A stretch of 64,000 nucleotides of DNA from a candidate division SR1 bacterium Aalborg_AAW-1 (GTDB taxonomy: Bacteria; Patescibacteriota; Gracilibacteria; Absconditabacterales; Absconditicoccaceae), in the NCBI GenBank assembly GCA_001007975.1, contig CP011268.1, positions 930,001 through 994,000 on the forward strand, given 5' to 3'. Every line of letters starts with the position of its first letter. Positions within the stretch are counted from its first letter, which is position 1. Under the pieces are notes generated by a model. The model worked only from the letters and a program-made list of their open reading frames with translations. It was not told the DNA's origin and made no database searches. Shown here piece after piece: positions 16,404 through 61,655 of the stretch. The position numbers and the translations under genes are program-made.

Positions 16404-16575
16404 TAAGCATGAAGACATTAAGCATTAAATATTAATGAATCAACAGTATAGAAAATATCAGCTTAAAAGCAATGGTAATAATAAAAACATAAAATGTCTT
16501 GCAATCATATATATATTATTCATAGTATGGTGTATACTGTCCGACAAAAAATTTAATACTGGACAGAAAATAAAA

Positions 16576-17142
16576 ATGAAAAAAACAATTTTTTTCGCAA
16601 GTGTATTGTTAGTGAGTAGTATGTGTACTATTATGTCATGTTCTAGAGAAGATGATGTCAGTGAACCACAATCTATGAGTGTTGAAAAATTGGAAAAACA
16701 AAGAGATACTGATCGTACCAATTATGTTAATTCAATTAAAATAAATCCGATTATTAATACAAATATTAATGCAAGGACAACTCAAAACTTTTCTGGGACA
16801 TTACCAAATGGCAATGACAAACAAAATGTACAATTAGGATCTACAAGTTGGATTGGCTCTTTTACATTTGGTTATTCAGTGAAAGTAACAAACTCTTCGT
16901 CCTCAAAAGCCCAATTAAACTTTGCTTTGTATGGAGTAACGAGTGGTGGTAGTAAATCTGTTATTGGCTCTTGGAAAAATGATATTCCAGCAGGAGGATC
17001 AAAACAGATTGATATTTCCAATACTACTGCTATTTTACAAAAAACTCAGTATAGTTCATTATTGGTTGTTGTGGAAAACGATGGTTGGTGGTTTAATAGT
17101 AATATACCAGTATATTATACTGTAACCTATACTAAGAATTAA
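16576..17142 (+). CDS. Secreted lipoprotein, Bacteroidetes-like (no TGA)
   Basis: A 188-residue predicted lipoprotein. The signal MKKTIFFASVLLVSSMCTIM is followed by lipobox Cys and SREDD, the acidic +2/+3 context common in Bacteroidetes surface lipoproteins. The rest is rich in Ser/Thr/Asn with beta-like segments (WIGSFTFGYSVKVTN, SLLVVVENDGWWF). All glycines are GGN, none TGA, unlike its neighbours. The upstream in-frame ATG at 16435 is unlikely because it would bury the signal. It stands alone, divergent from idi, between the two carotenoid operons. No family recognised. Confidence 0.7.
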   Translation: MKKTIFFASVLLVSSMCTIMSCSREDDVSEPQSMSVEKLEKQRDTDRTNYVNSIKINPIINTNINARTTQNFSGTLPNGNDKQNVQLGSTSWIGSFTFGYSVKVTNSSSSKAQLNFALYGVTSGGSKSVIGSWKNDIPAGGSKQIDISNTTAILQKTQYSSLLVVVENDGWWFNSNIPVYYTVTYTKN

Positions 17143-31051: not shown

Positions 31052-31098
31052 GCAAATATCTATGGACAGGTAGATGTAGAAGGTAATTTTTCATAATT

Positions 31099-31130
31099 AA
31101 AAAAAGAGACAATCGCATTACGATCATCTC
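31099..31130 (-). terminator. Terminator after the M57 protease gene
   Basis: Hairpin GAGATGATCG/CGATTGTCTC with a 5-base loop and two mismatches, followed by seven T on the minus strand. Confidence 0.6.
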
Positions 31131-31172
31131 AATGTGTGTTAATTATTCTCTTTTAAATTTTTAAGCTAGTAA

Positions 31173-32111
31173 TCAATAACCCCAATAGTAGTTTAAATTT
31201 TCTTTATCACAAGATGTAAAATCAGAGAAAGTTGTGGTCGAAGACATTCCTGAATACATAAAAGAATTAAAATTAAACCATTCATTACATGTAGAACCTG
31301 TATTAAATATAGTTGTACTATTCACAGAACTATCTGTATGCATAAAACCAACAGCATGTCCTATTTCATGAATTAATGCGTATTTTTTTGCATTAACATC
31401 AGCAGCTGGATTAGCACTATTGTTAATTACAATTTTCTCAGAAAAGTATCCCGGAGATTTAATTGGCTCTGTCCATGCAAAAGCAAAAGAATCATTAAGA
31501 TTCGCCATATATACATTAATATAACCACCAACAATGTTAGTATTGGTAGCATCTACTATTTTGAACTTTACTTTTAAACCTCGAGCATTCCATACTGCTA
31601 ATGCTTGTTTTAAAGCATTCTTCCACTCTGTATTTAATCCTGCAGTACCACTAGTGATGACTCTACATGTAATAGTTCCTCCAGAAGAATCATACATATG
31701 CGCTTGTCGCTTCATACGAGATTGTGCATTTGGATTTGATTCTATTAGTTTTTGAAGATCAGTTCTACTAATGCTTTCATAGTCATATGATGAATTCGTA
31801 TGTTTATAAGGTGGTATCATATAGTATTCTTCATGATTAGTATTTGTTATTTCAGGATTTTCCTGAAAGAAAATACGATCTTTACTATACTGCAACCACC
31901 TTTTATACGTACTGTCAGAGATTATTTTATTATCTCTCATATAATCAATTTCTTTTTTAATTTGAGGATCAGAAATAGCTAACTCTTGATTTGTTATTAT
32001 TTCCTCTAATTGTCTATTGTTTTCATCATCATTGTAACATGATGTAACTAGAGATAGAGGAAGAACGAATAAGAGTATAATAATAGCTGTTCGTAGAAAA
32101 GTTTTTTTCAT
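31173..32111 (-). CDS. M57-type zinc metalloprotease lipoprotein, imported-looking, TGA-terminated
   Basis: 312 residues to the TGA. A lipoprotein signal ends LVTSC followed by YNDDENN. The C-terminal domain has the zincin motif HEIGHAVGFMHTD and NSFMYSG, as in the Bacteroidetes dual-action HEIGH peptidases (M57). No in-frame TGA interrupts the gene, but the natural end is TGA (31173-31175) after YYWGY. If TGA is Gly here, reading runs on through Leu-Leu-Ala to TAA at 31161. The start ATG 32111 follows AAAATTT. CGA codons (WNA-CGA-GLK) read well as Arg. Probably acquired from a Bacteroidetes donor. Confidence 0.82.
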   Translation of the reverse strand: MKKTFLRTAIIILLFVLPLSLVTSCYNDDENNRQLEEIITNQELAISDPQIKKEIDYMRDNKIISDSTYKRWLQYSKDRIFFQENPEITNTNHEEYYMIPPYKHTNSSYDYESISRTDLQKLIESNPNAQSRMKRQAHMYDSSGGTITCRVITSGTAGLNTEWKNALKQALAVWNARGLKVKFKIVDATNTNIVGGYINVYMANLNDSFAFAWTEPIKSPGYFSEKIVINNSANPAADVNAKKYALIHEIGHAVGFMHTDSSVNSTTIFNTGSTCNEWFNFNSFMYSGMSSTTTFSDFTSCDKENLNYYWGY

Positions 32112-59620: not shown

Positions 59621-60295
59621 ATGAAGAAAATCAAAACAGAAAAACAATTCATTTATAAAACAAATGAATTGGAACAAATACTCAAAAAAAATTATGGGTA
59701 CAATGTTTTCTTACAAGAAATAGAAGTAAAAAACAAAAAAGTTTATTTCTCCATTTTATTAGAAAACGAAACCATAAAAAAAATATCATATTCATTTTCA
59801 GAATTAGAACAATTAATGAAAATACACTATGGTAACAACAGTTATAATATAAGACAAATAACAGTAATAGATCGAACAAAATTACATATAGATACTATCA
59901 AAAATAGTACTTCAATATGGAAATCAGAACATTCTTTGATTATAAAACAATTAATTAATAAAATTCAAGTAATAATCAACGATAAAAGTCGTACTGAAAA
60001 TTTACGTTTTATGATTGGTAGAATGTCTGAATGGAATGAATATACATCTTACAGATCTAAATTAAATCTTGAGATTAAAAAAAATCTCAAATCACAAAGA
60101 GATAGTACAATTAAAAATCATAAACTACAAAAAGAGTATGAACAATTACAATTACTTATCTCACTCAATAAATTAGTAAAATCAAGTAAGAAAAATATTC
60201 AAAATATTACTTACTATAATAATTTAAAATCTGATGAAACACAAACATTAATCAAAAAAATTGAAAATATTATTAATAACAAACAACTAAAATAA
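59621..60295 (+). CDS. Coiled-coil protein, unknown function (no TGA)
   Basis: 224 residues, Lys/Asn/Ile-rich. Two related N-terminal segments (FIYKTNELEQILKKNYGYN and YSFSELEQLMKIHYGNN) suggest a small repeat, then a long coiled coil (about 125-200). Very low GC. No TGA. Five bases before folA. No family recognised. Confidence 0.5.
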   Translation: MKKIKTEKQFIYKTNELEQILKKNYGYNVFLQEIEVKNKKVYFSILLENETIKKISYSFSELEQLMKIHYGNNSYNIRQITVIDRTKLHIDTIKNSTSIWKSEHSLIIKQLINKIQVIINDKSRTENLRFMIGRMSEWNEYTSYRSKLNLEIKKNLKSQRDSTIKNHKLQKEYEQLQLLISLNKLVKSSKKNIQNITYYNNLKSDETQTLIKKIENIINNKQLK

Positions 60296-60300
60296 AAATT

Positions 60301-60855
60301 ATGAACAAAAAAATTGTAGTAATCGCTGCTGTTGCAGCAGGAGATAATCTTATGGGTGGAACTAAGAATGATAAACAAATCATTCCTTGGCATTGTTCAG
60401 AAGATTTCAAGCATTTTAAAGAAACAACGATGGGAAGTGCTATGATTATGGGTCGTAAGACTCTCGAATCATTACCTGGACTACTTCCGGGAAGACCCCA
60501 TATTTATCTTTCGAGAGATACTACTCCTAGAGAGAATGTATATCGAGCAGTTTCATTAGCAGAAGCCATAGGAATTGCTGAACAGCTTTCTGAGAGAGAT
60601 ACCATCTATATTATTGGTGGTGCTGAGATTATTAATCTAGCACTACAAGAAAATATAGTAGATGAAATTATCCTCACGAAAATTTATGCAGTGATAGAAG
60701 AAGTACAATATCCTGTATATTTTCCTCTTCATGAGGAACAGTTGAAAGAACAATGGGAAATTATAGAAACGAGTGATATTAGACCATCACAAAAATCCAA
60801 ACCGGATCTTTTAAAGTATGAAATTATTAAGTACAAGAAAAAACATCAAAAATAA
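60301..60855 (+). CDS. folA: Dihydrofolate reductase
   Basis: 184 residues. [35 protein letters not shown] (substrate and M20 loop; Trp present), [25 protein letters not shown] (NADPH site), and [13 protein letters not shown]. Regenerates tetrahydrofolate, needed after ThyA. All glycines are GGN. It precedes thyA by 5 bases, a common pairing. Confidence 0.92.
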
Positions 60856-60860
60856 AAAAA

Positions 60861-61655
60861 ATGAAAAATTACTTAGATTTACTTCAACACATTTTAGATA
60901 ATGGTGTTGATAAAACAGACAGAACTGGAACTGGAACAAGAAGCGTTTTTGGATACCAGTTGCGCTATGATTTATCGAAAGGATTTCCGTTGGTTACTAC
61001 CAAAAAAGTGCATTTAAAATCTATTATTTACGAGTTATTGTGGTTTTTGAAAGGGGAGACCAATATTGCTTATTTAAAGGAAAATGGAGTTTCTATTTGG
61101 GACGAGTGGGCAGATGAAAACGGTGATTTAGGTCCTGTTTACGGTGCACAGTGGAGAAGTTGGAAAGGAGCAGATGGAAAAGTTATTGATCAGATTACAG
61201 ATGTAATCAACCAGATCAAAACGAACCCTGATTCTCGAAGACTGATCGTTTCTGCATGGAACGTTTCCGAAATTCCGAATATGGCCCTTGCTCCTTGCCA
61301 TGCTCTATTTCAGTTTTATGTAGCGGACGGAAAATTATCACTGCAGCTTTATCAGAGAAGTGCAGATGTCTTTCTGGGCGTACCGTTCAATATTGCGAGT
61401 TATGCGCTTTTATTAATGATGGTTGCACAAGTTACAGGGCTTGAAGTTGGTGACTATGTTCATACTTTTGGTGATGTACATATTTACAACAATCATTTTG
61501 AGCAGGTCAATAAACAGCTTTCAAGAGAACCAAGATCTCTTCCTGTAATGAAACTTAATCATCAGGTAAAAGATATCTTTAAGTTTAAATTCGAAGATTT
61601 TACTTTAGAAGGTTATGATCCTCATCCGGGAATTAAAGCTCCGGTAGCGGTGTAA
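60861..61655 (+). CDS. thyA: Thymidylate synthase ThyA, Bacteroidetes-like, standard code
   Basis: A 264-residue enzyme making dTMP from dUMP; its length and motifs equal E. coli Thy[40 protein letters not shown], catalytic Cys in [42 protein letters not shown]. More than 20 glycines, none TGA. Codon 126 of the [10 protein letters not shown] motif (the dUMP phosphate-binding Arg) is CGA (61236-61238); under CGA = Trp the enzyme would lose it. The high similarity to Bacteroidetes ThyA is judged from memory, not by alignment. Confidence 0.96.

What the first reader, a model, noticed from the sequence alone, without database searches (positions are those of the whole stretch)
31161..32111. M57 protease whose natural stop is TGA: a gene that would be read through here
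The gene has no internal TGA, and its end YYWGY is followed by TGA (31173-31175). In the host code TGA is Gly, and translation would run on as G-L-L-A to TAA at 31161, a harmless 4-residue tail. All other genes in the window end in TAA or TAG. With its Bacteroidetes-type lipoprotein signal (VTSC-YNDD) and HEIGH motif it looks like a recent transfer from a standard-code donor.
Basis: partly seen in the sequence, partly recalled or inferred. Interest (0 to 1): 0.8.

Follow-up and report, generated by a model that had tools for sequence, protein, structure and literature searches.

The report
Foreign protease gene with relic stop
A tiny parasite-like bacterium that reads the codon TGA as glycine carries surface-protease genes, probably captured from ordinary-code Bacteroidota-type bacteria, whose old TGA stop signal is still there and is now read as a glycine plus a short, apparently harmless tail.

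Summary
Observation confirmed. Window 31161-32111(-) encodes an intact M57/metzincin lipoprotein whose only TGA follows ...YYWGY. Under the host's code 25 (RF1 present, no RF2, a tRNA with anticodon UCA) it reads on as G-L-L-A to TAA. (1) The same genome carries a 51%-identical paralog with TGA at exactly the same place (tail GSTLS); a distant homolog in another Absconditabacterales genome also has TGA right at the domain end. (2) In all five full-length homologs found in this order, none of 88 glycine codons before the domain end is TGA, although native genes there use TGA for 33-75% of glycines. (3) Single-domain Bacteroidota homologs end at about this point, and the predicted structure is disordered from the TGA on. 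So the TGA is best read as a relic stop of a gene that evolved under the standard code. Codon bias argues against high expression as the cause. Limits: no close donor was found (best about 35%), the five copies cannot be shown to be separate transfers, and the window gene alone is only weakly unusual (P about 0.06). The broader lead is a set of TGA-free, Bacteroidota-type lipoproteins in these recoded bacteria.

The parts
31161..32111 (-). M57-type metzincin lipoprotein gene (316 aa read with code 25)
   Evidence: PF12388 1.7e-9, above gathering score; model resembles MMP/karilysin catalytic domains
32037..32111 (-). signal peptide with lipobox LVTSC, Cys25, followed by acidic stretch CYNDDEN (LES-like)
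   Evidence: sequence; LES as defined for Bacteroidetes in PMC5080379; host encodes Lgt and LspA
31335..31370 (-). zinc motif HEIGHAVGFMHT (residues 248-259)
31251..31265 (-). Met-turn SFMYS (residues 283-287; S283 and M285 invariant in the alignment)
31173..31175 (-). in-frame TGA: relic stop, read as Gly313 in the host
31164..31172 (-). readthrough tail Leu-Leu-Ala (residues 314-316), predicted disordered
31161..31163 (-). TAA used as stop in the host
31098..31130 (-). 11-bp hairpin plus U-run downstream, intrinsic-terminator-like
   Evidence: z -2.5 for the 91-nt stretch

Best explanation
The gene is a Bacteroidota-type, lipid-anchored zinc protease that evolved under the standard code and entered an Absconditabacterium (TGA = Gly) by horizontal transfer. 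Its original TGA stop remains. Because the host has no RF2 and has a tRNA with anticodon UCA, the ribosome should insert Gly at TGA and stop at TAA three codons later, giving an unstructured GLLA tail after the last helix, which should not disturb the fold. The host's own Lgt and LspA could process the signal, leaving the protease on the cell surface, where it probably digests proteins of neighbouring or prey cells. Shown by computation: gene, TGA and tail, decoding machinery, domain end, paralog with the same TGA. Inferred: transfer, donor group, readthrough product, surface location and role.
For: Same TGA position in a 51% paralog in the same genome, and TGA right at the domain end in the G025 homolog. 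Counting Gly codons before the domain end, 0 TGA of 13, 22, 19, 18 and 16 in the five homologs, against native rates of 0.33, 0.33, 0.45, 0.38 and 0.75. Single-domain Bacteroidota homologs end 0 to about 5 residues after the conserved LY. pLDDT under 50 for residues 313-316, after a helix at 300-310. RF2 absent and RF1 present in a one-contig genome; tRNA with anticodon TCA. The gene lies between recoded host genes: LytR-CpsA-Psr (12 TGA) on one side, NifU-like (1 TGA) and M29 peptidase (23 TGA) on the other; the paralog lies beside PNPase (9 TGA), which speaks against contamination. Patchy distribution: full-length copies in 4 of 353 genomes of the class. The M57 genes do not share the codon bias of highly expressed host genes. 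In G032 the four TGA-free lipoproteins also have off-host GC3 and codon usage. A published read-coverage correlation links Absconditabacteria with Bacteroidetes in mats (PMC8406219).
Against: No close donor: best homologs outside the genome are about 35% identical over part of the domain; none in plasmids, phages or viral contigs. Non-Gly codon usage of both own-genome copies is ordinary for the host. One clade of Absconditabacterales sequences is not rejected. The window gene alone has P about 0.06 for lacking TGA.
Confidence: 0.75

Rival explanations
1. The TGA is an ordinary native glycine codon near the C-terminus of a long-resident gene; TGA is absent elsewhere by chance or because the gene is highly expressed.
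For: Genes that look highly expressed (ribosomal proteins and an S-layer-like protein, named by eye) do avoid TGA, and TGA fraction falls with expression-like codon bias (rho -0.23). Host-like codon usage otherwise. Absconditabacterales copies may be one clade.
Against: M57 genes lie in the background range of expression-like codon bias; TGA is last among 14 and 23 Gly codons, at the same position in both paralogs, just past the domain end; the same holds in G025; 0 of 97 TGA in four G032 lipoproteins where natives use 75%.
Confidence: 0.1
2. Code-neutral gene: the family keeps circulating between standard-code and TGA=Gly bacteria, and TGA plus a nearby TAA/TAG is a stop usable in both, as reported for some phages of these lineages.
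For: All five homologs are TGA-free although deeply diverged; the own-genome pair kept TGA and gained no internal TGA over 49% protein divergence, so most of it probably happened where TGA was not a sense codon (inference); short tails (4, 5 and 10 codons); precedent in phages (PMC10746230).
Against: No copy in phage, plasmid or viral collections; no near-identical copy in a standard-code genome; one-way capture explains the same data.
Confidence: 0.13
3. Assembly or binning artefact: a Bacteroidota contig joined into the genome.
For: Bacteroidota-like gene.
Against: Single-contig genome; immediate neighbours are recoded housekeeping genes on both sides at two separate loci.
Confidence: 0.02

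Closest known systems
Peptidase_M57 (PF12388) lipoproteins of Bacteroidota
   Same: HExxHxxGFxH zinc site, Met-turn, lipobox, domain end at ..D..AL..LY
   Different: At most about 35% identity over part of the domain; here the old stop is TGA, read as Gly in the host
Karilysin / matrix metalloproteinases (PDB 2xs3, 2xs4; family M10)
   Same: Metzincin catalytic fold by structure comparison; karilysin is from the Bacteroidota species Tannerella forsythia
   Different: 13-18% identity; M10 Pfam score just below its cutoff (22.2 against 24)
Code-11-compatible phages of Gracilibacteria/Absconditabacteria (PMC10746230)
   Same: No in-frame TGA; TGA stops backed up by a nearby TAA/TAG
   Different: Chromosomal protease gene, not a phage gene; no phage copy found
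Horizontally acquired genes in Absconditabacteria (126 in Vampirococcus, PMC8080830)
   Same: Foreign gene acquisition in the same lineage
   Different: Here a relic stop codon marks the code of the ancestor directly

Membership tests
Peptidase M57 (PF12388) | profile score above the curated gathering cutoff | tested here: met
   38.1 against 21 bits; paralog 39.2
Peptidase M57 (PF12388) | zinc motif HExxHxxGxxH | tested here: met
   HEIGHAVGFMH at residues 248-258; H, E, H, G, F, H invariant in 34 sequences
Peptidase M57 (PF12388) | proteolytic activity | not testable with these tools
   needs purified protein
Metzincin fold | structural match to metzincin catalytic domains | tested here: met
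   Foldseek E about 5e-6, prob 1.00, TMt about 0.6-0.7 to MMPs and karilysin; model mean pLDDT 73
Bacteroidota surface lipoprotein (LES) | lipobox Cys followed by polar then acidic residues | tested here: met
   SC-YNDDEN; compare SDDDD and SDDFE consensus in PMC5080379
Bacteroidota surface lipoprotein (LES) | outer-membrane export pathway in the host | not tested
   Only Lgt and LspA were tested, both present
Genetic code 25 host | no RF2, RF1 present, tRNA reading UGA, TGA dense in genes | tested here: met
Relic (ghost) stop | homologs end at the TGA position | tested here: met
   in this genome the paralog has the same TGA
Relic (ghost) stop | close standard-code homolog using TGA as its stop | tested here: inconclusive
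   no close homolog found; of 78 distant homologous ORFs read with code 11, 9 end in TGA, one of which (L017) is the Absconditabacterales G025 copy itself
Code-neutral phage gene | occurrence in phage or viral genomes | tested here: not met

The most novel reading that the evidence does not exclude
Absconditabacterales keep a pool of code-neutral surface lipoproteins (M57 proteases, CHAP-domain proteins and others), free of TGA and partly behind shared promoter/signal-peptide modules, that keeps being exchanged with standard-code bacteria such as hosts or prey, so that the changed genetic code is bypassed rather than acting as a barrier for this class of genes.
Probability: 0.15. Interest if true: 0.75.

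Novelty: new variant of a known kind. Interest (0 to 1): 0.5.

Why it matters
A stop codon that becomes a sense codon on arrival is a direct mark of which code a gene evolved under. It offers a simple way to find transferred genes in recoded bacteria and to ask how far a changed code blocks gene flow. If the wider pattern holds, these bacteria take surface enzymes from standard-code neighbours with little penalty: a four-residue tail instead of a failed protein.

Tried and rejected
High expression as the cause of TGA avoidance: codon bias does not fit. Contamination: neighbours are recoded core genes. Phage or plasmid vehicle: no match. Donor search in 393 Bacteroidales genomes, 149 genomes of the order of a Saprospiraceae hit and 346 Flavobacteriales-order genomes: nothing closer than about 35% over part of the domain, apart from very short matches. 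First genome-contig scan with the single protein found nothing. Initiation signals: the host itself lacks Shine-Dalgarno sites, so this does not discriminate. Codon usage as a transfer marker: not informative for the two own-genome copies, informative only in G032. Independent origins of the five copies: the tree cannot decide. The third copy (C1:593939-594316) is an N-terminal part only and carries an internal TGA, so it is not evidence for a relic stop. Anti-phage defence models: no match.

Full report
What was claimed and what is there. The gene at 31161-32111 on the minus strand reads as stated: 312 residues ending YYWGY, then TGA (31173-31175), then TTA CTA GCT TAA. All 13 other glycine codons are GGA or GGT. 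The protein is a Peptidase_M57 member above the family cutoff, with a lipobox (LVTSC), an acidic stretch after the cysteine, HEIGHAVGFMH and a Met-turn. A predicted model resembles metzincin catalytic domains, including the bacterial karilysin.

The host code. The window lies in a single-contig genome of 1,044,756 bases; relatives in the same family that bear the gene include records named Absconditabacterales. The only class-I release factor found with the RF2 model is RF1 (RF1 models pass their cutoffs, the RF2 model does not). A tRNA gene with anticodon TCA is present. TGA makes up 33% of glycine codons in 500 ORFs from 504 kb. So TGA should be read as glycine here.

How unusual is it. TGA use varies much between genes: a beta-binomial fit gives P about 0.06 for no TGA in 13 glycines and about 0.006 for none in 13 followed by TGA as the last. 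The single gene is therefore only suggestive. Among 354 sampled genes with at least nine glycines, three have all TGAs within the last ten codons, against 0.6 expected by permutation (P 0.02). They are this gene, its paralog, and a small beta-barrel-like protein.

The decisive addition. The same genome has a second full-length copy at C1:796238-797215, 51% identical, with 22 GGN glycines, no internal TGA, and TGA immediately after the same YYWGY; its tail is G-S-T-L-S, then TAA. At 51% protein identity synonymous sites should be randomised. A shared TGA at a site with no conserved tail, together with no TGA at 35 other glycines, is hard to explain unless the pair diverged where TGA was a stop (inference). 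A distant homolog in genome G025 (Absconditabacterales) also has TGA right after the domain end (...EAYYELY, then TGA SLNSFI TGA DL TAG) and none before it. Homologs in G011 and G032 have no TGA in the protein and end in TAA or TAG. Host TGA rates are 45%, 38% and 75% in G025, G011 and G032.

Where homologs end. In an alignment of 34 proteins, single-domain Bacteroidota members end 0 to about 5 residues after the conserved ...LY; the window protein continues W-G-Y and then TGA. In the model a helix spans 300-310 and residues 313-316, exactly the readthrough part, fall under pLDDT 50. This fits a tail with no structural role.

Origin. The Bacteroidota-type signal and the patchy distribution (full-length copies in 4 of 353 genomes of the class) point to transfer. 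The neighbours are recoded core genes (NifU-like, LytR-CpsA-Psr, M29 peptidase; PNPase for the paralog), so the gene is not a stray contig. A donor could not be named: searches of about 890 Bacteroidota genomes and several collections gave at most about 35% identity over part of the domain. The tree has long branches, and one Absconditabacterales clade is not rejected (p-AU 0.31), so 'several recent transfers' and 'an older family that stayed in, or kept passing through, standard-code hosts' are both open. Literature supports the general setting: Absconditabacteria gain genes by transfer (PMC8080830), correlate with Bacteroidetes in mats (PMC8406219), and some of their predicted phages avoid TGA and back TGA stops with other stops (PMC10746230).

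A native-gene rival. Genes that look highly expressed in this host do avoid TGA. The M57 genes do not share those genes' codon bias, and high expression would not place the only TGA at the domain end in both paralogs.

A broader pattern. In the own-genome sample a simple lipoprotein search finds five candidates; the three with a strongly acidic stretch after the cysteine have no internal TGA. In G032 four lipoproteins (M57, two CHAP-domain proteins and one with a weak NAGPA match) have 0 TGA in 97 glycines while surrounding genes use 75%, and their GC3 and codon usage are off-host. Three of them share upstream and signal-peptide DNA at 75-82% identity, and the M57 gene shares about 70 bp of the signal region at 90%, yet the mature parts differ. 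In G011 three TGA-free lipoproteins alternate with TGA-rich genes, with a repeated spacer. This is a lead, not yet a demonstrated system.

Mechanism as proposed. Transcription with its own terminator-like hairpin, translation with Gly at TGA and release by RF1 at TAA, export and lipidation by host Lgt and LspA, both found and themselves containing TGA, and surface proteolysis. Only the sequence elements are shown; the product, location and role are inferred.

Noticed in passing
window 59621-61655 (+): Unknown gene, dihydrofolate reductase and thymidylate synthase in a row with 0 TGA in 32 glycines; likely another foreign block.
   Followed up: partly
window 16435-17142 (+): Small lipoprotein (SC-SREDD) with 0 of 14 TGA and no Pfam match.
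   Followed up: partly
L154:8129-8587 (G000:C1:458129-458587): Small beta-barrel-like protein whose only TGA is third from the end: possible third relic stop.
   Followed up: partly
L011 and L187 (G032 contig C64): Four TGA-free lipoproteins (M57, two CHAP-domain, one other) among TGA-rich genes, with partly shared 5' DNA but different mature parts.
   Followed up: partly
L009 (G011 contig C7): TGA-free lipoproteins alternate with TGA-rich genes; a spacer of up to about 500 bp is repeated at 81-92% identity, suggesting modular shuffling.
   Followed up: partly
G000:C1:593939-594316 (L006): Stand-alone N-terminal part of the M57 lipoprotein without the catalytic domain, with one internal TGA.
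   Followed up: no
L155:3963-6779 and L160:825-3563: An S-layer-like gene (by eye) and a 912-aa gene with 0 of 69 and 0 of 74 TGA: some large native genes avoid TGA-Gly, probably through high expression.
   Followed up: partly
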